64,000 nt of DNA, from NCBI GenBank assembly GCA_002189035.1, contig CM007990.1, forward strand, positions 5,456,001 to 5,520,000. Direction: 5' to 3'. Source of the DNA: Utricularia gibba. Lineage: Eukaryota; Streptophyta; Magnoliopsida; Lamiales; Lentibulariaceae. The notes beneath the pieces are model-generated. The model was not told the origin of the DNA. It did no database searches and saw only the letters and a list, made by a program, of their open reading frames with translations. Both the position numbers and the translations under genes were made by a program. Every line of letters starts with the position of its first letter. Within the stretch, counting starts at the first letter, position 1. Positions 15,827 to 64,000 of this stretch are shown here, in pieces.

Positions 15827-18800
15827 ATGGAAATTGATCTGAATCATGCTGTGAATGACGCGGACAAGAAGAAATGTATCTCTGGAAACTGTGTTTGTGG
15901 GTGCTGTTCATCAACTTCCACTACATCTTGCTCTTCAAATGCATCTTCTTCCTGTTCAGTTTCCGCTCCTCTGATTTGTAAGGAGCTGTGGCATGCTTGT
16001 GCCGGGCCTCTCACCAGTTTGCCAAAGAAAGGAAATGTTGTGGTTTATTTGCCTCAAGGCCATTTGGAACATATCTTCTCAGCTTCATCACTTCCTCCCA
16101 TGGAGATAAACACCTTTGGGGTTCCTCCTCACGTCTTTTGCAGAATTGTTGATGTTCAGCTACTTGTAAGTACCTACTCTTTCGTTTGTAGATGCAAAGC
16201 ACTGACAGATAGAAGGAATAGCTTGAGCAGTTTTTGAAAAAACATAGATATGAAAACAGACCTGTAGACTACACTGCACCAGCTCATTCGATGGGAATGA
16301 TGAATTTTCCGCTTTTTGCTCCTTTAGCGTTACCATGTTTGAGTATGTCCATGTTCTGAAACAGGCCAACAAAGAAAATGACGAGGTTTTCACTAAGCTA
16401 ACCTTGCTTCCTCAGCAGGAGGTAATTATTTGTTAGTGGGGTGGCTATCTGTGATGCTCTATCTATCATTGAGATCATCCACATTGAAGTATAACTCTGC
16501 TATGAAGGTGATAACAATCGATTGTGGAAGTGATGGCGGTGATGAGGAAGGGAATCCTGTTTTGCCATCAAAGTCAACTTCTCACATGTTCTGCAAGACG
16601 CTGACTGCATCGGACACCAGCACTCATGGTGGATTCTCTGTTCCTCGTAGAGCTGCTGAAGATTGCTTCCCACCTCTGGTGTTTATTCTGCTCGAGTGGC
16701 AATTAATGATTATCATGTTATTACTCTTTCTTAAAAGTTGCTTTTTTGTATAGGATTATAATGAACCGAGACCTTCTCAAGAACTCATTGCTAAAGATCT
16801 GCACGGTGTGGAGTGGAAGTTCAGGCACATTTACAGAGGTACAAGATTGATCACTTCTTTGCTTCTCATATGGAAAATCTGACTTCCAAATCATACGTTA
16901 CAGGCCAACCTCGACGACACTTGCTCACTACGGGGTGGAGTGTTTTTGTGGGTCAAAAGAATATCATGTCAGGCGATGCTGTTCTCTTTCTGAGGTTCAT
17001 CTCATCTGATATTCTCACAATCTGCGCTGAACCCACATAATGTGTAAAAATATTTGAACTTGGCTCTATGTTATGTTCCACACTAGTCTAGATTGCTGAC
17101 TTTAGCTTACAACAGGGGAGCTTCAGCAGAGTGTTATACTAAATGGAAAAATACAATATGTGCTTAAGTGAAGTTCAATATCTTGTAATGTCTGAACTCC
17201 CAAGTGTTGCTGAATTTGCAGGGGAGAAGATGGAGAGCTACGTCTGGGAATTCGGAGGGCAGTTCGCCCAAGAAACAGCCTGCCTGATTCAATCACTAAA
17301 AGTCATAGCTCTTGTGCAAGCGTGCTTTCACCAGTTGCTGATGCACTTTCGAAAAAGAAAAGCTTTTCTGTCTTCTATAGTCCAAGGTAACATGATCTGG
17401 TACTCTTAGGTCTCCCAACAAAAATTTTAGCCGGCACCAGTACTTTTGCAACATAATAGTCAACTTGTGCTGCAGGGGAAACTATCCTGACTTTGTCATT
17501 CCTTATGAGAAATATTTGAAGTCTACAGCATCTCCAATACCTATTGGAACAGCATTCAAACTGAGATTCGACCTTGATGACTCTCCCATAGAAGGTTTTT
17601 TTTTTTTTCCTTCTGCATGTCCATAGCTATTCTCTTCCCTCTTGCCTGCTAAATGAAATGCATTGCTTCTCACACATCTTCAGTGGAGTGGTTACTGGCA
17701 TCAGTGATGTGGACCCCTATAGATGGCCTAACTCAAAATGGAATTGTCTTGTGGTATAGACATCTCCTGTAAATGGCTTATGTTTTCCTGATGCTGCTTC
17801 ACCTGGCATCAAATGACAATGCTTCTGGACTGCAGGTTCGTTGGGACGATGATCTCTCAGGCAACCCCCATGACCGTGTTTCGCCATGGGACATCAGTTT
17901 TTCTGCTAACTGCCCACCATTGGGCATTGAGTACTCTCCTAGCTCCAGACACAAGAAACTGAGATCGAACATGGGCTGCTCCATCTCAGGTGCACATCTT
18001 TGCTTCTTGGATTTCTCTAGTTTTTCTTTGTGCCATCTGTTCTCATTGTGCTGGGGTGTGTTTCTTCTGTTCCCTTGAACTAGGAGGGCATGGGATTCTG
18101 GACTTTAACGAGTCGATTCGACCCTCCGAGGTCTTGCAAGGTCAAGAAAATGGTGGTTTAGTACCACCTCCATATTCAAGCGACCCACGAAGATTTGAGC
18201 TGCAAAAGACAGTTATCAATCACATGGCGAACATGATGGAGCGGACAAGCTACAATGAGTTTTTGCCAAACCAGGCTCCTCCCACAACTTTCACAGGCTT
18301 TCTGGAATCCAACTGGTTTCCAGGGGTCTTGCAAGGTCAAGAAATTTGCTCATTGAGATCTGTAACTGGGAACAGGGATCTGAAACATGGCGGTTGGTCC
18401 AAGCCTGAACTTGGTTATGGTGCATACGGCTCGAACCACCGGCCGGAGATGAGCTTCTACCCTTTAGCTTCAGAAGGCGTGAGAAATGTTACCATTTCCA
18501 AAAAGGGTGTTTATGGGATGGAACACAGGCCTATAACTCCATCAACCATTTTCAATGCCCACCCCGTGAGCCACAGTTTGGCTGATCCCTCCCTGCGCAG
18601 CAGATGCATTTCTGAAATCAGTGGCGCTGTTCGTATTCCAGATGAAAACAAGGCAGTGAAGAAACCATCTTCTCCAGCAGCATCAGGTATGCCTAGCAGC
18701 AGAAGCGGCCATGACCGAGATAAGGAGAGCTCTTCAGGACGCAAGATATTTGGTTTCTCATTGCCTGATGATCTCGAAACTCGTGGTCTACATGGCTCTA

Positions 18801-19343
18801 GCAGGAGGAGATGCATAAAGGTGAGGCTCTATTCAACTTAATGCACATCTGCTGCTGTTGTTGAGGAACCACAGCTCATTGTCTTCTATGATAAGGTTCA
18901 CAAACAAGGCAGCCTGGTGGGGCGAGCCATTGACCTCTCAAAGCTCACCACTTACGATGGTCTGCTGATAGAACTGGAGGGGCTGTTCAGCATGAACGGC
19001 CTGCTGCGTGATCCAAGAGAGGGATGGTGCGTGTTGTACACAGACAATGATAATGACATGATGGTCGTTGGGGACGACCCCTGGCCGTAAGTCCCTCTCT
19101 GAAACAAATCCTTTTCATCAAGCAGTAGAAACTGATGACTGTTTCTCCAAACGCAGGGAGTTTGTTGAAGTAGCTACAATGCTCCATATATACACACAGG
19201 AGGAAGTGGAGAAACTTATGATCATTACAAACAGCGATGATACCAAAAGCTGCTTAGAAGAAGCACACCCACCCAAGGCATCCAAGCCACCACCTTCAGC
19301 CAGGGAAATGGATGGATCTTCTGCAGCACTTGTGAGTACATGA
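15827..19343 (+). CDS. ARF4: Auxin response factor 4
   Basis: ARF4 is a nuclear B3-domain repressor of auxin-response genes, acting with ETTIN/ARF3 in abaxial identity. Exons: 15827-16165, 16365-16421, 16508-16678, 16754-16838, 16904-16994, 17222-17386, 17476-17594, 17684-17753, 17836-17989, 18084-18820, 18896-19086, 19157-19343. Domains: serine-rich leader then [20 protein letters not shown]3 domain ([32 protein letters not shown]); ARF domain (VSPWDI); a middle region with two VLQGQE motifs; and a C-terminal PB1 domain ([21 protein letters not shown]), which ARF3 lacks. Exon 7 is one base short: with canonical splice sites the frame breaks at 17585-17588, where one more C would restore it and give 788 residues. 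Otherwise a downstream acceptor at 17688 would rescue it. The tail is a TasiR-ARF target. Confidence 0.93.
18128..18148 (+). promoter_or_regulatory. tasiR-ARF target site 1 in ARF4 mRNA
   Basis: The 21 bases beginning GAGGTCTTGCAAGG and ending TCAAGAA encode VLQGQE. They are complementary to the TAS3-derived tasiR-ARF except near the 5' end of the target (second base). Such sites let the small RNA cut ARF3/ARF4 transcripts. Confidence 0.9.
18323..18343 (+). promoter_or_regulatory. tasiR-ARF target site 2 in ARF4 mRNA
   Basis: The 21 bases beginning GGGGTCTTGCAAGG and ending TCAAGAA appear fully complementary to the conserved tasiR-ARF sequence. It again encodes VLQGQE and lies 195 bases after site 1, the paired layout known from ARF3 and ARF4. 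Confidence 0.92.
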
Positions 19344-19565
19344 GCAGCCAGAGGGAGCTGTTTGCCTTCCTCTTGAACACCATGTATGTTCCTCCTTGAA
19401 ACTTATGAGTAATGTTGACAGTTCGGATGGAAATTTTCATTTATTAGGTAAGTGCTCTTCATGGAGCTTCGCGCGTGCTACAAGCTACAACTCGATCAAG
19501 TGAACGACAATTATTCATCTTGTCCCTTTCTTCAGGAACAAGAGCGTCAAATCATGTATCTTCCT

Positions 19566-20319
19566 TTACTTTAGCTCCAAAGAGAATGATTCCAAGTTGT
19601 CGAATCCGCACCCCACGTCGTAGGGGAAGTTCATAAGGTAAAAATCGTCAAATGTGTTAACGCCGATCATCTGCGATGTGGTCTCCTTGTAAATCCGGGC
19701 CATGAGAGCATCATTCTCCCATTGCAAGTTAACAAGCTGGGCCTGTGCTTTCGCTAGCTGCATCTGGAGTTCCTTGACTTGCTTCTGCAGTTGGAATATC
19801 GCCCCCGCACTCCCGTACACCGGATCTCTGATCCTCGCGTTTGCCTCGTAGACGATACTGGACACCGCGTCGGCTCTTTCTGACTCGGGAAGTTCCTGAA
19901 ACATCCAAAGATCTCTCCACATTATCTAGAAAATCCAAACGCCTCGTGTGAATAACACTTTTTTAATCTTTGACATTACACACCATGAACGTTGACTTCT
20001 CAATCCCATTTTGTTCAGATTCAGCACACCATTTTACCCAATCAGAAAGACAAGATCGTTCCTTTTCGTGACAAAACAAAGTTGAATAGACAAAGAACAA
20101 ATAACTGACGACTACCTGCAGGAGTTTGATAATGTTGCTAGCCCCGAAGACACGGTGAGCAATGGTGAACTTCTGAGGGTCGGTGGGCGGGAAGTAAGGC
20201 GCCAGAACGCATTTTTCAGCGCATCGGCGGCGGAGGATTCTGCAGGCGGCGCAAGGGTAAACGACGGTGGGAGTCCGGTCAGTCGACGAGGAGGAGATGG
20301 GTGAGCACGAGACGCTCAT
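19566..20319 (-). CDS. LOB-domain transcription factor, LBD1/LBD11 type
   Basis: Plant-specific DNA-binding protein of class I. Two exons, 20319-20116 and 19895-19566, give 177 residues, with the intron after FGASNIIKLLQ, its usual place in this family. The LOB domain has the zinc-finger-like CX2CX6CX3C block (CAACRILRRRCAEKC), the GAS block (APYFPPTDPQKF, HRVFGASN) and a leucine-zipper-like coil (FQLQKQVKELQMQLAKAQ). LBD1 and LBD11 act in secondary growth and meristem work in other plants; the same role here is inference. Its 3' end faces ARF4 with only about 220 bp between the stops. Confidence 0.93.
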
Positions 20320-21210
20320 TTCACTAACGAACTCTTTTCGAGCTGATCACATGACACCTCCTCCAGGGTATTTATTCTATCTTCACGCGCAGACTTTTCC
20401 AACAAAAAAAAAAAGCTGTTTCCAATTTTTAATATTTTTACTTAAAAAATACTTTTAAAAACAACATATAAAATTAAATTAAATGTATTTCTGATAAATA
20501 TATGAAAAATATAAGATAAAAATAAAAAATAAAATAAAGCATTAATTGATTTATGATTTATTTTGATGAAGAAGAACTAATTTTCCACCGTGAGGAGGAA
20601 TTAGTGTTCGACAATTGACTTTTTTTCTTCCCATTTTCACAATTTCACGATAAGACAACTTTTTCTGGTTAAGTCGCGGCCAAACCGAAGAGGAGAAATC
20701 CATCCCCTCCGGTTGTCTGCACACTGGAGGCACGATCATCAAAATCAAAGCAAAAGCCGACATTTTTATTATTCCCTTTTTAGACCCTCATGACATCATA
20801 CCATATGTCACGCTGACGTTTTTATTCTTTTTTTATAATATAATTCTATTTCGAATACTTGAATTCATGTATAAAGGACGCGTAGTGATAATTTCAATTT
20901 ATTATTTATTAAATTGAAAATTTACAATATATCAAAATCTAATAAATGTTCATATAATTACATATCAATCTCACTCAATTCATTGGACATATCAACAGCA
21001 TCATTATCAACAAATAACCTATTTTTTTGTCACTAGTTTACCATATGATAAATTCAAAATGAATTGATTTACATGATCGTATAATTAGATATTCGAATGA
21101 CAAGATACTTATACTTGTGAGAACTCAATAGAAATAAAAGACAATGTAGCCTTGTGTTGGAATAAGTATTTTAAAATCAGGTTGAATTTTGATTGAATCG
21201 GGTTAAATGT
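20320..21210. other. AT-rich spacer, LBD promoter side
   Basis: No gene seen. It should hold the LBD promoter next to 20320. The rest is low-complexity AT-rich sequence. A 70-codon ORF at 20551-20763 (minus) has no recognisable features. Confidence 0.5.
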
Positions 21211-21486
21211 ATTATAAATATATTATGAAAATAAAATAATTATTTAATTTTTTTAATATTATTAAAATCGAATCCAAAAAATCATTAATTTAGATCAAAC
21301 AACATGGAATCTCAAATTCAGTTCTAATATTTATCTAATAAAATCAAAACAATTTTATTAATTTCAATGTAGAATTGAATTATATCGCTCAATCCCCATA
21401 GCATAATATATTATAATGGAAATAATCAATATTTTTATATATATTATAATATTAAACAACGTACTCTAAATATTTTTTTCTTATAG

Positions 21487-21518
<32 letters not shown>

Positions 21519-22690
21519 TTTTATAAAATTTGTTTAATAGAAATGTATTTGTATGTTTTAAGTATAATATAATTATATATATATATTCAATTATATGTAG
21601 CGTTTGAATTTTAATATATGAAAATAAAAATTTAAATATATGATTGATATAAATATAATTAACTCTATTCTTCATTTATATACATATCACTTAGGGGTAG
21701 TTTGATATGAAAGTATTAGTATATTAAAGTATAGTATAATTAAGTGTGTATATATATTCACTTGTAAATTACGTTTGATATGAAAAATAAAAGTTTGAGT
21801 ATATAACTAAACCCCTCCTCCATTTTTATATATCATCCATATATTCAAAAAATGAGTATATCAATAATATAACTATATAAAATTAGTATATGTATATTAA
21901 TCAATCAAAAAATGATATATATATATATATAAACTTAGATATAAATCTTCTATACTCTCTTATCAAACAATACTTATATATTCAAAAAATAAGTATATAA
22001 ATAATATAATCATATAAAATTAATATACACATATTGGCTTATTAAATAATAATTTATATGTAAATTTTGATATAAATTTTTTATATTATAATATCAAACA
22101 TATTATAATAATATTCGAACTAGAAGAACCACCTTATATCACCATGTATTCACTTGTCTAGCTTCATTTTCATCAACTTATCCACGATGGCATCGTTCCT
22201 CTGAGTTGTGCGCGTGGCCGCAACTTCCTCGCACTCCTTGTCATGCAAACGTACCCTGGAAGTCCTCACCGGCTCCTTGCTCGACTCCACATCGACTTGC
22301 TGACGAGCATCACTCGGCTCCGCATTGACCTGCTGATGAGCGTTGCTCGACTCCGCATCATCCTGTTGACGAGCATTGCAGATGAATTTTAGAAGGCTGT
22401 AGAACTTTTCTAGTTCGTCTTGAGCGACACGCTCCTTCTCCATGAAATCTCTCATTGCACAGGATGGATAATAATATGCAATTATTCTTCAATGTGCTCG
22501 ATATTTATAGTTGAAATCATCTTTGTGACATGATGTATTCACTCAATGCTATGTTGATATATTAATATAATATTATTGATTTTTTCCATCAATATTAATG
22601 TAATATAATTTCAATCAATTATAATAATATGATTTCATTATTCGTAAAATATGATTTTAAATTATAAGTATGATCAAATTGTGACAAAAG
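21211..22690. repeat. Direct duplication, copy A (about 1.48 kb)
   Basis: Homology with copy B starts at TTATAAATATATTATG and ends near TCAAATTGTGACAAAA. Each copy has, in the same order, an AT-rich left arm, a TA microsatellite (here about 21488-21514), several 'GTATATTTAAGTATAG'-like stretches, and a small minus-strand ORF with its own TATA box. The copies have many substitutions and small indels, so the event is not recent. Confidence 0.8.
22150..22455 (-). CDS. Small charged protein, unrecognised
   Basis: The 101-residue frame starts MRDFMEKERVAQDELEKF and ends KLMKMKLDK. It has no signal peptide or membrane helix and is rich in E, K and Q, so probably helical in part. The middle holds three copies of an 11-residue unit: ARQQDDAESSN, AHQQVNAEPSD, ARQQVDVESSK. 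A TATAAATA box lies at 22502-22509, about 50 bp before the ATG, so it could be transcribed. The same frame occurs in copy B (24245-24472) with one unit instead of three and a premature stop. I do not recognise the family and assign no function. Conservation of the frame at both ends of the two copies argues that it was once a real gene. Confidence 0.5.
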   Translation of the reverse strand: MRDFMEKERVAQDELEKFYSLLKFICNARQQDDAESSNAHQQVNAEPSDARQQVDVESSKEPVRTSRVRLHDKECEEVAATRTTQRNDAIVDKLMKMKLDK

Positions 22691-23279
22691 GACTATGAGC
22701 GAAGGATTTTTGCTTCTGAGGAAACTGAGTGTGGATTATTGAATCGGAGTCTGAAATCAAGTACCTATATGGATAAAAGAAATAAAATAAGACCATGATT
22801 TTTATGTGAAAACCATCGTAACAAAAAAACCACAGAGTTGAGGTAGCTTATCGAAGAAATGAGTTTCATTAAAGAAAAGGGAGAAGAGTTACAAGTGATC
22901 TGTAAAAAGTTTAATCCCTTTTTCTTTGAACATCTCCATTTAGAGGAGAAGTCATCTCGATCGAATACTACTAATGTCAAATGCTTTCTACGCTTGACGT
23001 CTATATATGTGATCCTGGTTACAAATAATAGTCGACTGCACTGAGGACTTTGCAATTAAGTTACTTTTCATGTTCTTTTGGAACAATCATCACCATTCTA
23101 CTCTAATCCTTGACATTCCACCCATGTGTTACACACTGTCATAAACCATTTTCCTCTTCCCCAATTGATATCATCTAAAAAGTGTTGATTTTGGTATCCC
23201 ATCGCTTACCTATTTGTAAGTATCTCCTATGATCAATTCTACTTGACACTTACTGATTTAACGTCCCCATCAAATTTAT
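22691..23279. other. Spacer between the duplicated copies
   Basis: About 590 bp absent from the outer flanks of both copies as far as I can see. Parts (22780-23090) have the texture of a retroelement leader or LTR, but no ends, primer site or coding frame could be defined. Confidence 0.4.
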
Positions 23280-23558
23280 TATAAATATATTATGAAAATA
23301 AAAATAATTATATAATTTTTTAAATATTACTAAAATCACATCCAAAAAATCATGAATTTAGGTCAAACAACATGAAATCTAAAATTCAATTCTATCTTTA
23401 TCCAATAAAACGAAAACAGTTGTATTAATTTGAATATGAAATTGAATTATATTGCTCAATCCGCATAACATAGCATATTATAGAGGAAATAATCAACATT
23501 TTTATCTATATTGTAAGATTAAAAAAATGTTATCTAAATATTTCCTTGTTATGGTATA

Positions 23559-23596
<38 letters not shown>

Positions 23597-24716
23597 GTGC
23601 ATTTTTATAAAATATTATTTGACATAAGTGTATTTATGTGTTTTAAATATAATGTAATTAGATATGAATATATTCAATTATATATATAACATTTGAATTT
23701 TGATATATGAGATCATAAATTTAAGTGTATAAGTGATATAAATATAATTAACTTCATCTTCAATTTGTGTATATCACTTAGAAGTCGTTTGATAGCAAGA
23801 TATTAGTATATTTAAGTATAGTGTAATTAAATAGATATATATTCAATTATAGATAACGTCTAATATACGAAAATAGAAATTTAAATATATAAACGATATA
23901 CATAAAAGTAATTACTTCCTTCATTTATATATATCACCCATATACTCAAAAAATGAGTATGTTAATGATATAGCTATATTAAGTTAGTATATGTATATTA
24001 ATCAATGAAACAATGATATATGTGTAAACTTAGGTATAGAACTTCTATATTCTCTTATTAAACAATTCTTTACATATTCAAAAAATAAGTATATAAATGA
24101 TATAATTATAAAAGATTAATATGCATATATTAGTTTATTAAAAAAATAATTATTATGTAAATTTGAATATAATTTTTTTATATTATAATCAAACATATTA
24201 TAATAATACTCGAACTAGAATAACCACATTGTGTCATACTATATTTACTTGTCTAGCTTCATTTTCATTAATTGATCCATGACGGCACCATTCCTCTAGG
24301 TGGTGAGCGTGGCGGCCACCTTCTCGCACTCCTTCGCGAGCGAACGGATCCTGGAAGTCCTCGCCGGGTCCTTGCTTGGCTCCGCATCAACCTGCTGGCG
24401 AGCATTGCGGAAAAACTGCAGAAGGCCGTCAAACTTTTCTAGTTCATCTTGAGCAGCACGCACCTCCTCCATGAAATCTCCGATTGCAAAGTATGAATGA
24501 TGACAAGTAGTTTTCTTTAATGTGCTGTATATTTATAGCTAAAATCATCTTTATGGCATGTTGTGTTCACCCAATATTATGTGGATATTAATGTAATATT
24601 ATTGACTTTTTTTCATCAATAATAATGTAATATATTTAAATAAATTATAATAATATGATTTCATGATTTTAAAATTATATTTTAAAATACAAATATTATC
24701 AAATTGTGACAAAACG
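23280..24716. repeat. Direct duplication, copy B (about 1.44 kb)
   Basis: Same order of parts as copy A: left arm, TA microsatellite (about 23560-23596), AT-rich middle, small minus-strand ORF, and TATA box at 24530-24537. The right end of homology is near TCAAATTGTGACAAAA. Beyond it the sequences diverge. Confidence 0.8.
24245..24472 (-). pseudogene. Broken copy of the small charged protein gene
   Basis: The frame starts at an internal ATG (MEEVRAAQDELEKF); the first ATG of copy A is ATC here. It reads to ARQQVDAEPSK and TLTT, where TAG at 24296-24298 stands where copy A has CAG, a C-to-T change. The frame then continues, as in copy A, to QLMKMKLDK and TAA. Only one 11-residue unit is present. 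So copy B has probably lost function, unless the shorter product of about 58 residues is used. Confidence 0.6.
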
Positions 24717-25356: not shown

Positions 25357-26790
25357 ATGAAGGCATTGATAATTCATGCTGGCGCCCACGGGGTGGACTT
25401 GTGCCTTCGACATTACTTTCTTCATTGCCGATGATCGAGTTTGCTAACAAGCCTCTGGTTTCACATCAGGTAATGCGTTTTCTAGGTTTTCATTTCATGT
25501 TTATCTCAGCTCAAATTTGATCGCACAACTAGATTGAAGCGCTGGAAGCCGTTGGAGTAACTGAGGTCATCATGTTGACGGATTCTCCAACAGATGTAAA
25601 TTATGTTAACGTTATCTCTCAAAATTTACATTATGTAGGATTAAGGAATAAGAGCTCTTCAATGTTTTTCCTTGCAGGAGATGTTGAAATACTTGGCAGG
25701 TATTGCGTCCGAGTATGGCATAAGGATCAAACCCATCCGTGCTAGCGAGCCTCTTGGAACTACTAAGCCCATTCTTTTAGCAAGAGACAAATTGATTGAC
25801 AGCACCGGTGATCCATTCTTTGTCCTATTTAGTGATACTCTCTGTGAATTCTCGATGCTAGAGATGATTGCTTTCCATAGGTCGCGTGGAGGAGAGAGCT
25901 CTGTAATGGTAACCACGGTGAGTGCCGACTCTACAAACCAAAGGATGATTCTCATAATATTAAGAAAGTAAAACCATTCTGTTGATACAGGTTGATACTC
26001 CAACACATGGGGTGCTATTGATCGAAGAGGGCACTGGACGTGTAATCAAGCAGGTGGATAACCCAAAGTCTAAGGATGGAAACACTGTCTCTGCAGGAAT
26101 TTACCTTCACAATCAATCGATTCTTAACCCTCGTCCTACATCCACCGGGAATGCTGCATCCCCTAGAACTGAAACAGAGAGTCACATGTATGCAATGGCG
26201 CTGCAAGGTTTCTGGGTAGACATCAATCGGCCAGTGAGCTACATCAGTGGACTGAAGAAGTATCTTGCTTCTTTGAAGTTAAAATCACCTTCTAAGTTGG
26301 CATCTGGAAGTCATATACGAGGAAATGTATTGGTGGATGAAAGTGCTGTGATTGGGGAGGGATGCGTGATCGGGCCCGATGTTGCAATCGGACCGAAATG
26401 TATCATAGCGCCCCGTACAGTCTTAGCTCGTTGTGCAGTCTTGGTTGGGAGTCGTATCAATTCCAACACACTGGTGAATGAGAGCATCATCGGGTACCGT
26501 TCTACAGTTGGCTGTTTTACTCGTATTTGGGGCTGGACAATTCTTGGAGCGAATAGTCATGTGGGTGACGGATTGCTCATTTGTGGAGCTGCAGTGTGGG
26601 CTGGCGGGAAGATCGACCATAATCAGGTGCTGTCTGCTTGAATTTGAGTCCACTTGCTATAGCTGCATTTGGGATCTGAGTTGAAGGATAATAACGTCTA
26701 CTTCTGATACGAGTCTATCTCATGTTGGATTTCGATTACGAATTTTACTTTCGTTTTGACTCCCAGGTTTTACCCTGTCGGAAGAAATAA
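25357..26790 (+). CDS. GDP-mannose pyrophosphorylase-like protein, divergent
   Basis: The family makes GDP-mannose from mannose-1-phosphate and GTP for cell walls, glycoproteins and ascorbate. Exons: 25357-25469, 25533-25595, 25678-25917, 25991-26626, 26767-26790, at the family's usual intron places, so it is not a retrocopy. The N-terminal part reads MKALIIHAGA, then EFANKPL, IEALEAVGVTEV, FVLFSDTL; the C-terminal half keeps the hexapeptide beta-helix (GNVLVDESAVIGEGCVIGPD). Key differences: the nucleotide loop GGFGTRLRP is replaced, and the EKP signature reads DNP. The start exon is one base short; one more G in the run at 25390-25393 would put it in frame (AHGGGLVPST). Otherwise an in-frame ATG at about 25431 is available. 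Even when corrected it may not be an active enzyme. The last exon (VLPCRKK) is tentative. Confidence 0.75.
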
Positions 26791-30004: not shown

Positions 30005-35479
<5,475 letters not shown>

Positions 35480-37754: not shown

Positions 37755-39566
37755 TCACATTTTGGTGGACATCAAGACCTTTGTTTTCCGCTCCGCCGGC
37801 TTCAGGATCTGAAACGAGCACATCAAGTTTTCGTCTACGCTCATCATGGCGCCGGCATTGTCGAATTCGCCGCAGTAGTTCGGGGCTGAAAAGATCGTCA
37901 CCAGCTGCCTATCCGCGAAGAATTCATACCCATCTTCCACAACCTGACAAGGGAGGGAGGGAGGGAGCTCAGAAGCATGGAACCAAACAGGATTGATTTG
38001 TTTAAACAGAAGACAGGTGAATGTAGTAACCTGATGAGCTCTGCAAACAAGATCCAAATCATGCTTCGCCAAGAACTCCGACACCTTATCAGCACCGAAG
38101 GTGAAGGACACTCCCCTGTCATTCATTCCCCATCCTTTAACATCCTTACCAGGATCTGACCAGAGTAAATCACAGAGCAAACCGGTGTCGGGGATCGCCG
38201 TGGGGCGGGGCAAGTTTCTGATCTGATCCAGGTTGTTCAGCTCGGGAGAAAGGCCACCGTGCATGCATAATATCTTGTCATCTATAAGTGCAGCAACAGG
38301 GAGGCAGTTAAAGCAATCGGTGAAGGATTTCCATAGTTTCACATTGAAGCGACGCTTGCATTCATCGTAGAAGCCATATATCCTGTTAATGGAGGCGCAT
38401 TCATGGTTGCCCCTGAGAAGGAAGAAGTTCTCTGGATACTTGATTTTATAAGCAAGTAAAAGGCATATTGTCTCCAAGCTCTGTTTCCCACGATCAACAT
38501 AATCCCCTAAGAATAGGTAATTCGACTTGGGAGGGAATCCCCATACTCAAAAAGCCTCAAGAGGTCACTGTACTGTCCATGAATGTCACCTGCAACAATT
38601 TTGAACACCGCAAGTCCATAATCTGTGTAGCGTGGAAGAGAGCAAGAAAAACAAAAATCTGGGCCAATGATCCTTCCCATTATCAGGACAAGGAGGCAAT
38701 GCGGCCTCTGGTTCTGAATCAGATCAAGCCGAACAAGCAAGCAGTAACAATTTCACGAGATTGCTACAAAATAGATACGCATTCACTTTTCCAAGCCGTA
38801 TGATAGATACACCTCTATGAAGCTTAATGCAAAGCCAGGTTTTGATAAAACCAACGTGGATATTCGGTAATATAAATGAAGCAAGAACATGAAGAGTTCA
38901 CAGAGAGTGATACAAAGCACACAAAAAGGCAGAAGTAGAAGCATTCAACATAAGAACAGAGTTTTCATGATCACATTGTCATTTCTTATCTCCATATTCG
39001 ACATAATCAGGCTACAGAAACTGAGAATTGTGAAACACAAGTCATGGAAACCGCAGTTACGTGGAAACCGCAGTTACGTTTCCCTAACACGAACAAGTGT
39101 ATGGGGAAAAGAAGCCCCGAAAAACAAAGATACGTACAGCGAAACAAGAGAAATGGAAACACAACTAACATGGGAAACCCTCAGACTGCTTTCTGACCAA
39201 GAAAGGGAAGAACAAGCCATAAAGAGAGTCCCCGATGAACCGAACATACGAAACCCGAAAAAGAGAAAGGATCTTTCAGAATCAAATCCCATGAATGAAA
39301 ACTCGTCGATATTCTTTCTCAGAAGGAAAAGATAGGAACTTTATGCACATAAACACAAACCTACAGATTGGACGAAAAAAAAACTTACCACAAATCTTGA
39401 TGGGAGCTTGGAGCTCGAGGAGATTTGGCTGACTCGCAAAAATCTCACGCGATGCAACACACAGTTGTTTTATCTCAGATTCGGCAAGCGGTACCAATTT
39501 CCCCGGCTTAGAGGATCGGACTTCCACAAGTTTCTCAATAATTCTATCCAGCAACGCAGAGTCCAT
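37755..39566 (-). CDS. Serine/threonine phosphatase PP1 catalytic subunit (TOPP type), frame broken once
   Basis: A metal-dependent protein phosphatase used with many regulators in cytosol and nucleus. Three exons: 39566-39389, 38589-38031, 37943-37755. Metal and catalytic motifs: [40 protein letters not shown]. The core of this protein is nearly invariant in eukaryotes, which makes the break easy to see: after LFEYG the frame shifts because the C run at 38539-38542 (G on the coding strand) is one short, giving a stop soon after. With one more base it reads [18 protein letters not shown] and continues intact to the end (308 residues). So it is either a very young pseudogene or, more likely, an intact gene with a consensus error. 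Confidence 0.93.
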
Positions 39567-46670: not shown

Positions 46671-48820
46671 TCAGCTGATAATCTTGGCCTTTGTATCGTG
46701 GCTAAGGTAGCTTGTGAGCGCCTTCTTGACTCCAAAGCCAGGGCGAGGAGGCTTGCTACTGAAACTTTTTGTTGGGGTGCCTGAGCCAGGCACTGTATCT
46801 GAGCTGCTATTCTTCTTGTTCACTTGGGTTACAGATAATAAGACCTTCTCTGGTTTCCGGCTTATGTCGTCCACATACAAAACATCCTCAATGCGAGCCA
46901 CAATGCTGAATGCCAAGCTCTCCAACACTCTTGAGTAGCTTTCAAGAATGGCCTTCCCCACATCCTGTGTCAATGAAACAAGAACTTCTGAGTGAGAATA
47001 GTGTGATGATGTACAGAGTAATGTGGATGGATGGATATCAACAACCTTGTTGCACTGTATTTTGATAATATCCAAGTTACTTTGTGACAGGTTTGGAAAT
47101 CTCTGCTTCAAGCAATGAAGCAGGCCTTCTGCTCTTTCAGCTAGAGCTTTGCCTTTGACCCCATTCATCATGAAATCCTGCAAAAGACCCCAAGATGAAG
47201 ACGACCTGTTCTGTTGCATCTCGGGTGCAGCTTCTGGGTGTTGTCTTCTCCATAACACGTATATAGCTGCCTCGAGGCGGTTAGCTATCTCAAGAGCAGC
47301 GTGCTCAGAGGCGGGATCAAGGCAATCAAGCAAGCATTCCGGGGAAAAGCCTTCAGATGTGAAGTATCGATAGATAACTTCACCAAGACATGCTCTCCCA
47401 GTCTGATTCCAGCCAATGAAAACAAGTTATGCAAAGGGAAGAGTTTTAGATAAAACCAGATTCACTCAAACCTTGGGAAGAGTTTCGAGGTAGGATGCAG
47501 GAACTTCCATTTCAGACAAAACAGCGCTGTTTATGGAAGAAGCAGCCTTGAGAATCTGGCTTGTGGACTCACGCTTATGACACAACTTCTTTCTTGTTGA
47601 CTCAGAAAGGCCATCAGGGGGACTCGAGGTAAAGGTAGCCACCACTTTTCTTTTTCACGTGGAGTTGATTTACCCGATCCATCTGTTTCTGGTGTAGCAG
47701 CTACAATCCCTTGATCAACATACCAAAATTCTGTATCGGCAAATCCATCAAGCACTTCCTGTGAAAGAAATGCCATAAGAACCAATGAGCAACAAGGTGC
47801 ATTAGAACAAAATGTGCATCTGTCATTGATTTCTTACAAGTAGCATGTTGTCAAGTTTGCAAAGAGCCGGCAGATTAATGGCCAGATCTGATCTGGGGCG
47901 GCATGTCATTACCTGCAAAGCGCATTTCAAGTTCAAGTGGGGAGGAACAGTGGCAAATTGAAGCCTGAAGAAACTGAAACAAACTTGCCTCAAGTGTACC
48001 ACCATCAGGAAAAGTTTGCAATGTGGGTACAAACTCAATGATAAAATCACTGACTGAAAGAAGCCATTTCATCTCTCTTTGCCACATTGCCTTCTTTCCA
48101 GAAGCCAGCGGTTCCAATCTCCACAATTGACCAAACACAGTAGCTACACGTAAGGGTCATACAGATCCATCAACACACCATACAGCACAGAGAACAAAAA
48201 GAAAAGAAAAAAAAATTGAAAAAAGCACTTTCGTCTTAATTCACAAGATTCCAGCAGTTATTAATCAGAAGAAATACATGAGTATGGATAGAGAGCCTTC
48301 TAACCGCACAGATTAGTTACGGCGTTTGAAATCGTCAGTGCTGAACAAACCCCTTCCCCACCTCCAGACATATCTTCACCAAGCAAAAGCTTTGCAAATC
48401 GCTCTTTCATCATCTCCAACTCTGTGAGATATCATCCTCAGTTGTCATCATTATCTCTAAAGAAAGAAATTGCGGAAAATAAAGGAACGAAACTCTGACT
48501 AGTTCAATTTTTAGGCTGAAAAACTGAAGCTGGGAGGTTGTAAAAACAGTTAAACATCATTAAGTACCTGAAGCTTTGTCAGTCTGCTTTAACAAGGAGT
48601 CATCCTCTGAGCTCAAACAAGATCCACCTTTTCCACTCCCCACAGAGACACAACTTGGAGCATCCCCTCTAACCCAAACGGACCGACCAAAACAAGAATG
48701 GTCAGAGCTCGATCTACTCATGCTCCCGCTTCCCTGAACCGAATCCATCATAGATTCACCGCTAATCGACTCGCACCCATCTTTCTCAACGCTCTTCTCA
48801 GCAAGATTCTCACTTTCCAT
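46671..48820 (-). CDS. ROPGEF: Rop guanine nucleotide exchange factor (PRONE domain), frame broken once
   Basis: RopGEFs switch on plant Rho GTPases at the plasma membrane to steer polar growth and receptor-kinase signalling. Seven exons: 48820-48568, 48421-48305, 48143-47989, 47912-47838, 47758-47472, 47402-47046, 46964-46671. The PRONE domain starts at about [20 protein letters not shown] and shows [54 protein letters not shown] and [14 protein letters not shown] Ser-rich N-terminal arm and a C-terminal tail lie outside it, as expected for autoinhibitory and receptor-contact parts. Exon 5 is 287 bases: the G run at 47617-47621 (C on the coding strand) is one short, breaking the frame between PRVP and DGLSES. 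With one more base the protein is 512 residues. Intron 3 has a GC donor (47988-47987). Confidence 0.93.
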
Positions 48821-50458
48821 ACGAACACAAGCCAAAATAATGAAATGCTCAGACACGGGGACCTAATTCGAAAATGGGTTGCCTCATAAAACAAAATTGC
48901 ACTGAAATATCAAATCCCAATAAGCTCAAAAGGTGCATAGAGAGGGAAAAGATAAACACAACGAACACAAAACCAGCTCTTTCCCAAACGAGCTACTGGA
49001 ACCAGAGTGAAGTGGGTTTATGCATTGTGGTTCGTGTTCTGTGCAGCAAGAATTCAGGCAGCAAATGTTCAACCAACGTCCATTTATTTACACGTGAATG
49101 CCCCCACCCCCATTCAAAAAATCCATGGCGGCCATATCGTGAGGGCAACTAAAATGGGGCATGCTTTTGTTGAATATTACAGTTCTGCCATTCCTGGTCC
49201 TGTGTACCGTTGAAGTGGAGGCAACTTTCCAAATTTGAATTTCTTTTTTTTTTCCATTTCCGATATATTATTATTTTTTTAACTGAATGGATTCCTTAGA
49301 TGGAATTCTCGTATTATTAATTCAATGATTTTCTATATTTGTGTTATTTTAACGAAATTAAAAACAAAAAAAAAAACGTTTTAGTGGGCTGGACCGAGAA
49401 GAAATTGGACAGGTGGCTCCGAAGCCCAAAGCCCAATAATAGCTACTTTTAGGCTAATTAAATGAGCAATTAAAACGGGTAGCCCGAAAAGGTTGTTGGG
49501 CTGGCCCATGGGGAAGAAAACGGCGATTTTTTTTTTCTTTTTCCGGCGGTCAACAGTGTGTCCGGCTGCGATCGGGAAGGCTGTTTGGATTGGAAGATGG
49601 GAGTTTTTTACTGCTAAATTGACATGATTTAGATTTCAAAAATGCCAGATTCAACGTTTTCATGAAGTATCTGCAGCTTTTTTGCTATGAAGACACGTTG
49701 TGCGTGGTGGAGGGAAGCCGGGCCCGCCTGGATTGGGGCATGATTGTCCACAAGCCACCCAATTAGCGTGAGTGATACGAAAGCAGAGGAAAACTTCAGT
49801 AGTGTATCTATATATTCACAGCAAAGTTATGATCTTATCTTCTGCCGCTTATTGCGTCTCCCCAGCTCAATTCTCAGGGAATCGTCAGTCAAAAGTTTGA
49901 GTTTCTTGAAAAGGAGCGGAATCAAACATCTGGTTTATGGGCCTCAAGTAAATGATCGATCTTTTCCCTTTTCAGCCTCTTCATGACCTTGTATCATGGT
50001 TGTGCTTCTTGATCCGCTTGATTGGGATGTTGGTTCATTATTTCACGCTTGTTTTTTGAGTCAGAATTACTTTTGTCCCACATTTAATGTCCTGATGATA
50101 TGTTATGAGGTAGCATACATGAGGTACTGTAGCTAAAAAGGTTATAGTTTTTCTTTGTCTAGTGTGATCCTCTGTTCATGATTTATTTCTTAAAATTTGG
50201 TTTTCTTGTGATCTTTTTCTGTTTTGATCTATCTGAGAAGAGCTCTGTTTCATACATCTGCAATCTTAACTGAATTCCACATAAAGCTTTGATCCACTTG
50301 AAGTTCCAGCTTCTACATTGTTACTGATCTTGTGGTCTTCACTGCTCAGATGACTTAGTGGGATACAATTCGAGTTTAAGAAACACACCTTTCAGAGTTT
50401 AGGGAGAAGAGAAAGGTTATCCAGAGTAGAGCCCCCGTGTCAGGTTGCATTCACAAGT
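48821..50458. other. Divergent region between RopGEF and GC1
   Basis: Promoters and leaders of both genes. A GC1 leader exon around 49740-50450 is possible. Nothing else recognised. Confidence 0.5.
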
Positions 50459-52964: not shown

Positions 52965-54542
52965 ATGAAACGGCGACGTTTGGTTGTGTTCCCAGTGCCT
53001 TTCCAAGGCCACGTAAACCCGATGATTCAGCTCGCGAGAATCCTCCACTCCGCCGGGGATTCGCCGTTTCGGTGATACACACCGCACATAATTTCCAAAA
53101 TCCGGCAGACTACCCCTCCGATTTCACCTTCCACCGCATCGACGACGGCGCCACGGGTTCAGCCCCCGCCCTAGATACTTCAGATCTCATGGTGCTCCTC
53201 AAAGGCCTGATGCGAAGTTGCGAGGAGCCGTTCCGCCGCTGCCTGAGGGAGCTACTGTCCGCCGCCGAGGCAGATGGAGAGACGGTGGTCTGTGTAATTA
53301 CCGACTCCGTTTGGTCGTTCGCGCAGTCCGTTACGGCGGAGCTTCGGGTCCCCAGGCTGGTGCTTCGGACGAGCAGCGCCGCCTCATTGGTCGCCTTTCA
53401 CGCTGTGAGACAGCTAAGGGATCAGGGATACTACCACCACATGGGTACGTGCAGTACGACACAAGCTTTGTTTTTTAATTCTTATTTTCATTTATTAAAA
53501 GTATATTCCCCCTGATTCTACCATTCGTTTGTCACGTACGGCGATAAATACTAAAATATATTTTCCTTTTTCTTTTTTTTTATCAGAATCCAAAATGGAG
53601 GACACGATCCAGGGGCTAGAGCCTCTGAGAGTAAAAGACATTCCTACCCTCCAGAACGTAAACCCAGACGACCTAGTGGAGGCGGTGTCCAACATCATGG
53701 CGGCCACCAGCGACGCCGCCGCCCTCATTCTCAACACCTTCCAAGAGCTGGAACCCTTCGACCTTCCCAGGCTCCACGCCCGCTTCCATCTCCCCGTCTT
53801 CCTCATCGGCCCCTTCCACAAACGCTTCTCGGCGGCCGCCAGCACCTTGCTCGCCCACGACCCGACCTCCATCTCCTGGCTCGACCAACAACCCCTAGAT
53901 CCGTCCTCTACGTCAGCTTCGGTAGCATCGCGGCGATGGAACCCAGCGACGTCACCATTATCGCATCCGCGCTGGCCCAATCCAACCACAAGTTCCTGTG
54001 GGCGATCAGACCCGGATCGGTACACCGACCCATTTTCATCCTCAGATTGAACTGGTATTTGAAGACTAAAATAATACGTTTTTGGATGCTTTTAGGTGCG
54101 AGGATCGGAGTGGCTTGAGGCGCTGGAGGAGCAAATTCTTAGTGGGTGCAGAGAAAGGAGCCACATCGTGAAATGGGCGCCTCAGCAACAAGTGCTATCG
54201 CATCCTGCAGTGGGAGGTTTCTGGACACACGGGGGGTGGAACTCCACTCTGGAGAGCATTTGCGAAGGAGTTCCGATGATCTGTTCGCCGTTCTTCGGAG
54301 ACCAAATGGGGAACTCGAGATACGTGAGCGATGTCTGGAAGGTGGGGATCCGACTGGAGAATGGGTTCGTGAAGGAGGACATCGTGAGTGCGATCACAAG
54401 GCTGATGGGTGAGGAAGAAGGTGAAGAGATGAGAAGAAGAGCCGTCCGTCTGAAGGAGAAAACGGACATTTGCTTCATCCCCGGTGGGTCCTCCCACCAA
54501 GCTCTTGATCGCCTGCTCAAATTCATGTCGTCGCTCAATTAA
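52965..54542 (+). CDS. UDP-glycosyltransferase, UGT76-like, frame broken twice
   Basis: Family 1 UGTs move a sugar from UDP-sugar to hormones and secondary metabolites in the cytosol. Three exons: 52965-53444, 53587-54019, 54096-54542. N-terminal acceptor domain: RRRLVVFPVPFQGHVNPMI with the catalytic His in QGH, then HTAHNFQNPADYPSDFTFH. C-terminal donor domain: the PSPG box from WAPQQQVLSHPAVGGF to FFGDQ, with HGGWNSTLES and a final Gln that favours UDP-glucose. The frame breaks at 53055-53058 (GGGG) and again at 53892-53895 (CCCC); one more base in each run gives a clean 453-residue protein, the normal length. UGT76 placement rests on the N-terminal motif and the spacing. The extra intron (53445-53586) is unusual for many UGTs. 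Confidence 0.9.
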
Positions 54543-54699: not shown

Positions 54700-54724
54700 G
54701 AACCGGGTTTTCTCAAAACGCTCC

Positions 54725-54731
54725 TATAAAT
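54725..54731 (+). promoter_or_regulatory. TATA box of the small HSP gene
   Basis: TATAAAT, 26 bases after the heat-shock element and 79 before the start codon, leaving a normal short leader. Confidence 0.8.
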
Positions 54732-54809
54732 GCCTCTGCAACTTGGAGTGCTAATCGTTGCATCGAGCAATTTCTAGGGTTTTTCAAGTGACTGAAGCAT
54801 TTGAAGGTG

Positions 54810-57483: not shown

Positions 57484-57655
57484 TTGATACAGGGACATGT
57501 AAATCTCTGGCCCTTTTACAATCAAGATAAATCATACAGCCCAGAAACAGGGGGCAGACAGACAGAGGAAACAATAGTCAATCAAGGGCTTGTTGATACA
57601 GCACAAACAACATGCTTCTTCTTCTTCATCATCATCCTTTCTTCTGGCTGCTGAT

Positions 57656-59359: not shown

Positions 59360-60442
59360 CAATTTTTCAGCTCGAGTGAGTGAAGAAGAAAAGAGCAAGG
59401 AGATGAGATATATAAGCAGCAGGGGAAGCAAGCGATATCCCCTGGAATAGCGGCCACAAGATTGGAGATTAGATGACGACACGTGGCGAAAAGGTAATGA
59501 ATAGGGAAACGGGTGCAGGGGAGCGCGCGTGAGGCTATCATCTCCCCTCACTTCCTCTCCACTTAAAAAGAAAAATCAATTAAATCGTCCACACGAAAAA
59601 TGGGTAAATTGAGGACCCTACGATCATACACAAATCATGGTCGGCTGCGATTCCTTCCGGCAAAACAGGGACCCCTGACCCTAACCAGGAATTCATTTTG
59701 TCCGAAAATTAGGAGGGATAATGATTTCATTCCAAATAAGAAATGTTTCTCGTGAATTCTAAAACACAATTAATTAATTAATTATTATTTTTTTATCGAA
59801 TCTCAAAAAAGAAAAAAGAAAAAGGAGATGTCTTGCATATAGTTGGTGGGATATTTACAAAACTATCTAATTATAATAATATTAAATATGATCGATTTTT
59901 TCACATGATCATTTTTCTAGATCAAAATATTTTAATATTTTAATATACACGAAAGAAAATAAGAATGACTATTAATTTTGGATTTCAGAATTTTTTTTCC
60001 AAATTTTCTGAAAATTATGAGCATTAGTTATAGAGGGGGACAAGCAACTTGAACATATAGGATCTTTTATAATTACAATAACTATATTTATAAACATTAT
60101 TCTCTTTGGTGTTTTTTTTAATAATTTATTATTATTATTTTGATATATATATATATATTACTTATTAAATATGTATTTTATGTTAAATATATCATTAATT
60201 AAAATATATTAATTAACAAATGCACAGTACCAGTTCTCCTATTATCTAATCTGCGCAGAGGGTGTTTTTTTTGACATTGCAGTTCGTGAGCCGGCTGGCC
60301 GGAGCTATGGGAACCGCCGCCGTCCGGCACATGTCATGGCGGTGATCAGATAAAAAGAGGATCATACAAATGAATTGAATGGTGTATTCACCCTACAAAC
60401 TAAAGAGGCCGGCTCATGTGGTAAGAAAAACCAAATCTAATC
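59360..60442. other. Spacer between RCA and zinc-finger gene
   Basis: RCA promoter and leader at the left, AT-rich middle, 3' end of the zinc-finger gene at the right. Nothing else recognised. Confidence 0.5.
59480..59485. promoter_or_regulatory. G-box in the Rubisco activase promoter
   Basis: CACGTG, about 120 bp before the RCA start codon. A TATA-like TTATATAT on the minus strand is at 59408-59415. G-boxes are bound by bZIP and bHLH factors in light-regulated genes, which suits RCA. Confidence 0.7.
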
Positions 60443-60904
60443 TCAGTCAACGGCCTTGCCACAGTGAAGGAACATGTTTTCTGAAGGAGTTAGGTTCAGA
60501 TCCATACACACCACTCTCCTCCCATTCCCATTAACCTTCTTCACCATCGGGATCGTCTCCGCCGCCACTGTTAAAGCCAGCGGCAGCGGTATCGATTTCC
60601 CGTCGGGAACGCTGTCTCTGTGTCGTCGCATATGCCCACCTAACGCCTGCCCCAAAGCGAACTCCAATCCGCAGACCGAACACTCATGAGTCTTCGGTTT
60701 CGGCGGCGAAGGGGGCTGCTCCGCCGACAATCTTGCCTTCTTGTGGCTCGCCCGGTGACCCCCGAGTGCCTGGAAAGATGAAAACTCCCGGTTACACGTC
60801 TTGCAGGTGAATACCCGCCCAGAGTCATCACACTGACGCGATAGCAGCATCAGGTAGCCAGCCATAAGGGCGACGTCATCTTCTGCACTTCTCTTGGCAG
60901 CCAT
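60443..60904 (-). CDS. C2H2 zinc-finger repressor, ZAT11/ZAT12-like
   Basis: A single-exon, 153-residue nuclear factor of the plant QALGGH class. It has an N-terminal leucine-rich stretch (LMAGYLMLLSR), two fingers (CKTCNREFSSFQALGGHRAS at about residue 34 and CSVCGLEFALGQALGGHMRR at about 74), a basic-Pro linker, and a C-terminal EAR repression motif (MDLNL). Two-finger C1-2i proteins of this size are stress-induced repressors in other plants; the exact subgroup needs a tree. Confidence 0.95.
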   Translation of the reverse strand: MAAKRSAEDDVALMAGYLMLLSRQCDDSGRVFTCKTCNREFSSFQALGGHRASHKKARLSAEQPPSPPKPKTHECSVCGLEFALGQALGGHMRRHRDSVPDGKSIPLPLALTVAAETIPMVKKVNGNGRRVVCMDLNLTPSENMFLHCGKAVD

Positions 60905-61714
60905 GAAAAAGGAAACAAAGAAACAGATGCAGAGATATATGCATGTACAGATACATCAGCATATATTGTACTTGGTTCATATAGGGAGAGGAAGTCAGAA
61001 AGTAGCTGCACATATTTTATTGCAAGCTGGAGATATTGACTGAATCCAAGTCCACGGAATTTGGCGATAAGAATGAAGGTTCAATTCAACATAAACATGC
61101 TTTCCCTTTTTACACTTGGGATGTAGCTCAAGCTACACTTCTACAACTGCTACTAGCACACAATTCAAACCAACCGCCATTGATGAAGATGACTTAGCTT
61201 ACTCGGTTACCACAAACTAAAAAGTCAAACCTTTCTTCTACTGCAATCCAATGAATACGAAGTAAAGGCAACACCTTTTTCAAGTCAAACATTACAAAAC
61301 TATATTATACTTGCAGCAGTGATGCAAGTGATGAGGGGAGCATGACGGGGGACGGGGGGAGGTAAAAAAAATTCTATCTTTAAGTAAAAGCTCCTCCTTC
61401 AATGCACCAGTTGAAAGGTTTCAGGTCAAACTAGAAAGCGTGTGTTTGTTTTACTCGGTGACTAGAAGAAAAAACAAAGGGCTTCTAGAACCCCAGAACC
61501 AGAGCTGACGCGGCGCTCACATTTCACACAGCCATGGTCAGTGAACTTGAATTTCTTGAAGGGAATTTTATTCATTACTTTTCAGGATCTTCAAACATGG
61601 AGAAAAGTAAATTACAAGCGGACTACAGAGTCTGAATGCTCAACCAGTGGGAGAAAACCACGAACAAGGCTAAATTTATTGAATAGGAGGAGACAAGACT
61701 AAAACCTCATCGGA
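60905..61714. other. Spacer, zinc-finger promoter side
   Basis: Promoter of the zinc-finger gene at the left and the 3' region of the small gene at the right. A pyrimidine/purine-rich patch lies at about 61330-61380. No gene recognised. Confidence 0.5.
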
Positions 61715-62036
61715 TTACTGATTTGTAGGCTCATGAGAAGATTCCTCGGAACTGGGTTTCTGGAATTTCTGTTTGAATGAATCTTGCTTCTGCATCCAAG
61801 TCATATGCCCCTGCGCATTTAGAAGCGAAAACGATTACGAAAAAATACAGCAGGCAGAGACAGGGAATCGGAGAGGGGGTATGATTTCATGAACCTGAAG
61901 TGCTGCTGCCCAGGCGATGAGGAACGAGGCGAACCATAATCTCTTGTCCTTGAGAAGCTGCCGGATTTCTGGTTTTCCGGCTTCCATTTTCGCCGGCGTA
62001 ACGTAAACCCCGTCCTTCGACTTTTCTATCACCCAT
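61715..62036 (-). CDS. Small one-helix protein, conserved in plants, function not known to me
   Basis: Two exons, the first ending at 61895, the second 61810-61715. The body reads KSKDGVYVTPAKMEAGKPEI, then LLKDKRLWFASFLIAWAAAL (one hydrophobic helix), and after the intron GHMTWMQKQDSFKQKF and a Ser/Glu-rich end. I believe this matches a widespread short plant protein, possibly a mitochondrial inner-membrane subunit, but cannot name it. The start is unclear: the ATG at 62036 is separated from the frame by one extra base (ATG-G-GTGATAGAA), so either the G run there is one too long, or translation starts at the internal ATG at 61987. About 70-77 residues. Confidence 0.6.
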
Positions 62037-62478
62037 TAGCGGGCCGCGATGAGGCCCATATAAATGGGCCTTCAATTCGACCCCACCCAAAATCATATTC
62101 AGGCCCTTTGAACAAGAGATTTTCAAAATTATTATTATATGCAATTAATTATACTTATTGTTATATTAATTAATAGTTAAAAGTGTTATATCAATCATCT
62201 TTATTTATATTTAATTTATGAATTTTTATTAAATTATTAAACTATCTATAAATTAGAAATACGATTTTTATGTTATAATTACATATTTCTATTTTTTTCC
62301 GCCAAAAATAAAAAATATTTATAAATAAAAAAGAAATATATGACGAATTAAAAATTTTTGATTTAATAAAAATCACAACCACTAATCGAACAAAAGCTAC
62401 TTGTCAGTACAAAGGTTAAGACGTAATTAACGAGGCGAGGCTCCCACGAGTTCCATTTGAGCGCCTGCCGCCTCTTCA
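62037..62478. other. AT-rich spacer
   Basis: Promoter side of the small gene and 3' end of the glucanase. AT-rich, nothing else seen. Confidence 0.5.
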
Positions 62479-64000
62479 TCAGAGGTACTTGCAGCGACCG
62501 GCACCTGAATCCAGCAAGAGAAACCGGTGAGGAAACAGTGAGCACTACGGAGAAAAGGGAGCTGTTAAGAGGGAGGTACTTGGATCGGTGACGGTGAGCA
62601 GCCCGGTGCCTGAGAAGTAACAGTTGAAATCCTGCCGACCATGTGTTTGATAAAATGAGTTCATCACGAAGGAGGCGTGCGCCCTGAGGTTGTTTGGATT
62701 GAAACAAGCCCCGCCTGCCTGGATCGGGGAGCAGTCGGTGCCCTGGCTGCATACGTAGTCAATGTTGGCCTGCAGCGCGGCGGCGCTCGTCTGGGGCTTA
62801 GGTACGCACCATTTCTTTTTGGCGCCCACCGGAGCGGCTGCCACCGGAGGCTTGTTTCCGTTTCCCTGCTGAGCAGGCCACAGACAATAAGCACTAGATA
62901 CAGAAAAAAATAGCGATAAATTCGGACAAGACGCAGATCACACGGGGTCCCGACAGCAGGCACAAGGAGGAGCATCTTTCCCTTTTTCTGGACTTCACGG
63001 GGGAAGGGTAGGAATCAATCACGTGCATAGGCTTCTTTTACAGTAAAATATTAACTTTTCACTTTATTATTATTATTATTATATTTTCAAAATCCAAATT
63101 CAATTTTGCAGGTTTTACCTGGGGAGGTGCAGAAGTTGCAGAAAGTCCGGTTGGCAAGACGCCGGCGTCGTAAACGGGGCTGAAATCGGGTCTAAACAGC
63201 CCGAAGTTTTTCTCCGACAACGGCCCCGGCTTTAGATTCTCGTTAAACAACGAAAACAGATAAGTCTCAAATCTCTTCCTGGGCATCAATGGCGTCCCTC
63301 GGCCCAATTTGTGCTTTTTCACCAAACCCCCAATGTATGCCTGTGCGTTCTCAACTGAGCAACGCGGCACTTCGAAACTATCGCCGGCGGCCGCCCACCC
63401 AGTTTCTCCCACCGCAATGTCAACGTCCCCGTAGCCGAGTCTCTTCATCGAAACGAAAACAGCATCCATCAACATATCGAACATGTTCCCGTAAGTTCTC
63501 TTGCTGTAGCGATCGAAGATTCCCTTGTTGGGGAGGAATAGAGAGAAATTGGCGTTTTCCGGGCTGTAGCCGAAGAATGGGTACGGGTTCACCATAAAGG
63601 GGGATTTGGTTTCGCGGTGAAATTGCAGAACAGGGGCGAGGTTTCCGACATCCCATCCGGGTCGGAACTTCGCGAGGCTCGGGGCTCCGATGATTCGAGA
63701 ATACCCAACGAGTGCGCCGTCGTCACGTTGATATCTCGGATCCCGGAGGCAGTAAGGGCTTGGTGGAGGCTTCTCATGGCGGCGACGAGGTTGTCGCGGA
63801 GATTCTGAGGTCCCCAGTGTAGGATTTCGTTTCCGACGAGGATGTAATTGATTCTGGTTTGGGGGTGAAACGGCTGGATGTTGGCGACGACCCAATTCCT
63901 GGCAACGTCGGGGTTGGTCAGAGAAGGGATGTCGCCGTTGGGGATGGTAACGGCGACGAGGATTCCAGTGTTGGCGAAGGCGCGCAGGATGTCGGGGTTA
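62479..64000 (-). CDS. Glucan endo-1,3-beta-glucosidase, GH17 with X8/CBM43 domain (partial, frame broken once)
   Basis: Cleaves beta-1,3-glucan (callose) in the wall; many GH17-X8 proteins sit at plasmodesmata. The N terminus, signal peptide included, is beyond the right edge. Exons: about 64000-63119, 62865-62580, 62504-62479. GH17 landmarks: FANTGILVAVTIPNGDI, INYILVGNEIL (acid/base Glu), VNPYPFFGY, VDIAVGETGW (nucleophile Glu). The X8 domain has WCVPKP, ALQANIDYVCSQGTDCSPIQ, CFNPNN, HASFVMN and QDFNC, with the family's cysteines. The protein ends GRCKYL with no long hydrophobic GPI tail. The G run at 63681-63684 (C on the coding strand) is one short, breaking the frame between ESSEP and SLAKFRPGWD; one more base restores it. 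Confidence 0.9.

What the first reader, a model, noticed from the sequence alone, without database searches (positions are those of the whole stretch)
17585..63684. Seven one-base losses, all in short G or C runs, in six otherwise intact genes
Seen: ARF4 (17585-17587), GMPP-like (25390-25393), PP1 (38539-38542), RopGEF (47617-47621), UGT76-like twice (53055-53058, 53892-53895) and GH17-X8 (63681-63684) each lose exactly one base inside a run of 3-5 G or C. Adding one base back gives, in each case, the conserved family sequence and a normal length with canonical splice sites. Known: homopolymer deletions are the typical error of several long-read and pyrosequencing methods. Inference: these are consensus errors, not pseudogenes; automatic annotation would wrongly split or drop these genes. 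ARF4 and GMPP-like are the weakest two cases. Genes with longer runs (P5CS has a run of six G) are intact, so the error is not universal.
Basis: partly seen in the sequence, partly recalled or inferred. Interest (0 to 1): 0.7.

Follow-up and report, generated by a model that had tools for sequence, protein, structure and literature searches.

The report
Genome-wide G/C-run base-loss assembly errors
Several plant genes here look broken only because the genome assembly dropped one letter from short runs of G or C; the same fault recurs across this whole assembly, so it is a sequencing artefact, not gene decay, though two of the seven reported cases do not fit well.

Summary
The window lies on a 6.2-Mb contig of a 100.1-Mb plant assembly, most likely the PacBio/HGAP assembly of Utricularia gibba.

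Five of the seven sites are as described: PP1, RopGEF, UGT (two) and GH17 each lose one base in a G/C run. A duplicated block elsewhere in the assembly keeps the longer PP1 run. ARF4 does lose a base, but its duplicate places the loss at a lone C outside the run. The GMPP-like gene shows a plausible frame loss, but its catalytic signature is gone in any reading, so it is a degraded copy.

The pattern is genome-wide. In 55 UGT and GH17 genes (69 kb of coding sequence) I found 20 one-base losses, about one per 3.5 kb. Of 27 events placed, 25 lie within 3 bases of a G/C run, against 24% of simulated random deletions. The rate rises with run length (3%, 10%, 25% for 4, 5, 6); none was seen in 475 A/T runs. 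One locus assembled twice differs only by three such losses in 3,824 bases, with no substitutions. Broken genes show purifying selection.

Verdict: consensus errors of a known kind. Raw reads were not available.

The parts
38539..38542 (-). PP1: GGGG (gene strand) in codons for LFEYGGFPP; frame loses one base
   Evidence: duplicate L002 on C451 has GGGGG
37758..39559 (-). PP1 catalytic subunit gene, otherwise complete apart from this one shift
   Evidence: dN/dS 0.09 against the C451 copy
47617..47621 (-). RopGEF: CCCCC (gene strand) in [16 protein letters not shown]; frame loses one base
   Evidence: duplicate L052 reads CCCTCC
46674..48862 (-). RopGEF gene (PRONE domain)
   Evidence: dN/dS 0.15-0.31 against the C451 copy
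53055..53058 (+). UGT first site, GGGG; frame loses one base
53892..53895 (+). UGT second site, CCCC; frame loses one base
52965..54542 (+). UGT76-like gene; one GT-AG intron at 54020-54095
63681..63684 (-). GH17: CCCC (gene strand); frame loses one base
62548..63999 (-). GH17-X8 gene, running off the window; X8 motif at 62689-62817
17585..17592 (+). ARF4: one base missing near CCCATAGA, best placed at a lone C outside the run; real mutation or error not decided
   Evidence: L079, C451
25390..25393 (+). GMPP-like: GGGG with plausible frame loss inside a degraded catalytic signature

Best explanation
The losses at PP1, RopGEF, UGT (two) and GH17 are residual consensus errors of the long-read assembly: the length of short G/C homopolymers was undercounted by one base and not polished out. 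The same process acted across the assembly, with a probability that rises with run length. The genes themselves are most likely intact in the plant. Shown: the base losses, their confinement to G/C runs, the run-length dependence, and a doubly assembled locus that differs only in this way. Inferred: that the reads come from PacBio CLR with HGAP/Quiver, that the species is Utricularia gibba, and that raw or short reads would show the longer runs.
For: 1) Same locus assembled twice: C338 (39 kb) against C328 (2.6 Mb) over 3,824 columns has no substitution and three one-base losses, all in G/C runs and all in the small contig. 2) 20 one-base losses in 69.3 kb of coding sequence in 55 UGT/GH17 genes on many contigs. 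3) 25 of 27 events lie within 3 nt of a G/C run of 3 or more, against 24% of simulated random deletions (p about 7e-14); A/T runs 4 of 27 against 32%. 4) Loss rate 3%, 10%, 25% for true run lengths 4, 5, 6; 0 of 475 A/T runs of 4 or more. 5) Purifying selection: dN/dS 0.09 for PP1, 0.09-0.10 for the broken GH17 genes L073, L076, L078. 6) The PP1 duplicate keeps GGGGG. 7) Precedent: an HGAP v3 plus Quiver assembly had 205 residual indels, nearly all in G or C homopolymers (PMC4832174). U. gibba was assembled with HGAP at 88x (PMC5793159).
Against: No raw reads, transcripts or independent assembly of the window could be consulted. No second contig covers window 44-64 kb, so the replicate evidence comes from another locus. 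Another duplicated stretch (C376 against C413) is identical over 2,451 columns, so the error is not uniform. ARF4 and GMPP-like do not fit well. The published assembly methods paper is not held, so the polishing history is unknown.
Confidence: 0.95

Rival explanations
1. True pseudogenes: gene copies left over from whole-genome duplications are decaying by small deletions.
For: Duplicated blocks exist (C451), and the GMPP-like copy really is degraded.
Against: All 27 scored events are one-base losses and they sit in G/C runs. Decay would also hit A/T runs, give gains and stops, and relax selection; dN/dS is 0.09-0.31 in PP1 and RopGEF. Two copies of one locus differ only by run losses.
Confidence: 0.03
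2. A real mutation process in this plant that shortens G/C runs, for example a mismatch-repair bias, with frameshifts truly present in the genome.
For: Dependence on run length also fits replication slippage.
Against: Slippage should hit A/T runs too: 0 of 475 were hit. Both gains and losses would be expected. It would break about a quarter of the genes in two families while leaving them under purifying selection.
Confidence: 0.02
3. Mixed case: five sites are errors, while ARF4 and/or GMPP-like carry true disabling changes. This is compatible with the best explanation for the other five sites.
For: The ARF4 loss is best placed at a lone C. GMPP-like has lost its catalytic signature, with dN/dS 0.36-0.39 against about 0.09 between the intact GMPP copies.
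Against: ARF4 is otherwise open by eye; GMPP-like stays open over the rest of the gene.
Confidence: 0.5

Closest known systems
Residual homopolymer indels in PacBio HGAP/Quiver assemblies (Streptomyces albus SM254, PMC4832174)
   Same: Small indels left after Quiver, nearly all in G or C homopolymers
   Different: There 205 in 7.2 Mb at 262x; here about one per 3.5 kb of coding sequence in the sampled genes, far denser
[quoted passage not shown]
   Same: Otherwise intact genes look pseudogenised
   Different: In the Nanopore genome analysed in PMC12007338 A/T runs were hit about twice as often as G/C runs; here only G/C runs are affected
Fractionated duplicate genes (pseudogenes) after whole-genome duplication
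   Same: The window has a duplicated partner block on C451
   Different: Loss spectrum and selection do not fit decay, except perhaps GMPP-like

Membership tests
Long-read consensus homopolymer error | Loss sits in a homopolymer run | tested here: met
   25 of 27 within 3 nt of a G/C run of 3 or more, 24% expected; five of seven window sites
Long-read consensus homopolymer error | Rate rises with run length | tested here: met
   3%, 10%, 25% for true lengths 4, 5, 6; small counts
Long-read consensus homopolymer error | Two assemblies of one locus differ by indels without substitutions | tested here: met
   C338 against C328: 3 losses, 0 substitutions; a second pair was identical
Long-read consensus homopolymer error | Raw or short reads support the longer run | not testable with these tools
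   No reads available
Long-read consensus homopolymer error | Assembly made from error-prone long reads | tested here: inconclusive
   Species inferred as U. gibba from contig sizes and a truncated DCL3; methods paper not held
Pseudogene | Relaxed selection (dN/dS near 1) | tested here: not met
   PP1 0.09, RopGEF 0.15-0.31; GMPP-like 0.36-0.39
Pseudogene | Mixed disabling changes (stops, gains, larger indels) | tested here: not met
   None in PP1; the genome sample shows almost only one-base losses

The most novel reading that the evidence does not exclude
The plant truly carries thousands of one-base losses in G/C runs, through a biased replication or repair process, and tolerates or bypasses them.
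Probability: 0.02. Interest if true: 0.8.

Novelty: not a real feature. Interest (0 to 1): 0.3.

Why it matters
If the sampled rate holds, about a quarter of genes in such families carry a false frame break in this assembly. Gene-loss, pseudogene and gene-family counts drawn from it without read support would be biased, above all for GC-rich coding sequence. It also warns that apparent gene loss in this plant should be checked against transcripts first. The published DCL3 truncation is not of this kind: no helicase remnant was seen upstream, and the authors confirmed it by 5' RACE (PMC8333044).

Tried and rejected
- A placement test that let any base be inserted anywhere overfits the reference and was dropped as a criterion (only 10 of 27 G/C-compatible within one score unit, none A/T-compatible); location distance with a simulated control replaced it.
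- C98 sequences taken first as GMPP relatives turned out to be ADP-glucose pyrophosphorylase; true GMPP copies are on C142 and C321.
- Explaining the published DCL3 truncation by run errors: rejected, another gene sits upstream and no helicase reading was seen by eye.

Full report
What was examined. The window is G000:C2:5456001-5520000 in a 100.1-Mb, 516-contig plant assembly. Contig sizes (C1 8.5 Mb, C451 6.82 Mb) agree with the U. gibba PacBio assembly, for which Unitig_8 is 6.8 Mb (PMC8333044) and HGAP at 88x was used (PMC5793159). The genome also has a DCL-type RNase III gene on C213 without a Dicer dimerisation domain and without a helicase reading upstream, matching the published truncated U. 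gibba DCL3. The species is thus inferred, not proven.

The seven sites. All runs are at the stated coordinates, and the three frames on both strands were read. PP1 shows a single -1 shift at 38541 in a complete enzyme, and the duplicate on C451 has five G where the window has four. RopGEF changes frame between two PRONE parts that adjoin; the duplicate reads CCCTCC against CCCCC. The UGT gene has two shifts and one canonical intron. GH17 passes from profile position 150 to 153 across the shift.

Two weak sites. In ARF4 a base is missing relative to its duplicate, but the best alignment puts it at a lone C (ATA-GA against AAACGA), not in CCC. The GMPP-like gene does not regain its family signature when a base is added; the motif GGFGTRLRPLT is replaced, while intact copies exist on C142 and C321. 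Its dN/dS of 0.36-0.39 exceeds that between the intact copies (0.09). It is best seen as a degraded or diverged copy.

Genome-wide survey. UGT, PRONE, GH17 and ARF families were searched in the whole assembly. A frameshift-aware protein-to-DNA aligner was written and run on 30 UGT and 25 GH17 loci. Twenty one-base losses appear in 69.3 kb of coding sequence, nearly all at runs such as GGG, GGGG, CCCCC. Six further loci picked only because the match table showed a frame jump also gave one-base losses, five at G/C runs of 3 or more and one at GG.

Statistics. Of 27 events, 25 lie within 3 nt of a G/C run of 3 or more; 108 simulated random deletions in intact genes do so in 24% (p about 7e-14). 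Without the three window events it is 22 of 24. A/T runs are avoided (4 of 27 against 32%). By inferred true length the loss rate is 3%, 10% and 25% for 4, 5 and 6, and 0 of 475 for A/T runs of 4 or more. Run lengths were assigned by eye, and loci were the best-scoring matches, which favours intact genes, so the rate is probably a lower bound. Two GH17 loci (L067, L075) gave +1-type shifts, which could equally be two-base losses from C runs; they were not counted. The intact six-G run in P5CS is expected at these rates.

Replicate evidence. The 39-kb contig C338 and a stretch of C328 are the same sequence: 3,824 aligned columns, no substitution, three one-base losses in G/C runs, all in the small contig. 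Real alleles or duplicates would also be expected to differ by substitutions. A second pair, C376 and C413, is identical over 2,451 columns, so errors are uneven. No such second contig covers window 44-64 kb.

Selection. PP1 has dN/dS 0.09 after the site against its duplicate, RopGEF 0.15-0.31, and broken GH17 genes 0.09-0.10, like intact pairs. This does not fit old pseudogenes.

Literature. An HGAP v3 plus Quiver genome had 205 indels left, nearly all in G or C homopolymers (PMC4832174). [quoted passage not shown] PMC12007338). No held paper that I found reports this for U. gibba, and the assembly paper itself is not held.

Conclusion. Five sites are consensus errors with high confidence; ARF4 is undecided; GMPP-like is probably a truly degraded copy. 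Reads would settle all seven.

Noticed in passing
window 15.8-62.4 kb against C451 about 1.148-1.180 Mb: A duplicated block with conserved order (ARF4, PP1, RopGEF, genes downstream of UGT), 72-85% identical: a likely whole-genome-duplication partner.
   Followed up: partly
L077 (C338) and L091 (C376): Small contigs that repeat parts of large contigs (C328, C413): redundant assembly, useful as an internal error gauge.
   Followed up: partly
L090 (C213:2757000-2762000): DCL3-like PAZ region with no helicase reading upstream and a zinc-knuckle RS protein gene on the other strand: fits the published truncated U. gibba DCL3, not a run error.
   Followed up: partly
window 25357-26638 +: GMPP-like copy with the catalytic signature replaced, while the rest stays open.
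   Followed up: partly
window 3446-7129 - and 10154-12512 +: Two neighbouring MLO-like genes in opposite orientation (read by eye).
   Followed up: no
window 2-3265 -: Long open copia-type retrotransposon reading at the window edge (read by eye).
   Followed up: no
window 22277-22379: 33-base tandem repeat inside a reading frame whose relative recurs at 24299-24532.
   Followed up: no
L067 and L075: Two +1-type shifts in GH17 genes that could equally be two-base losses from C runs.
   Followed up: partly
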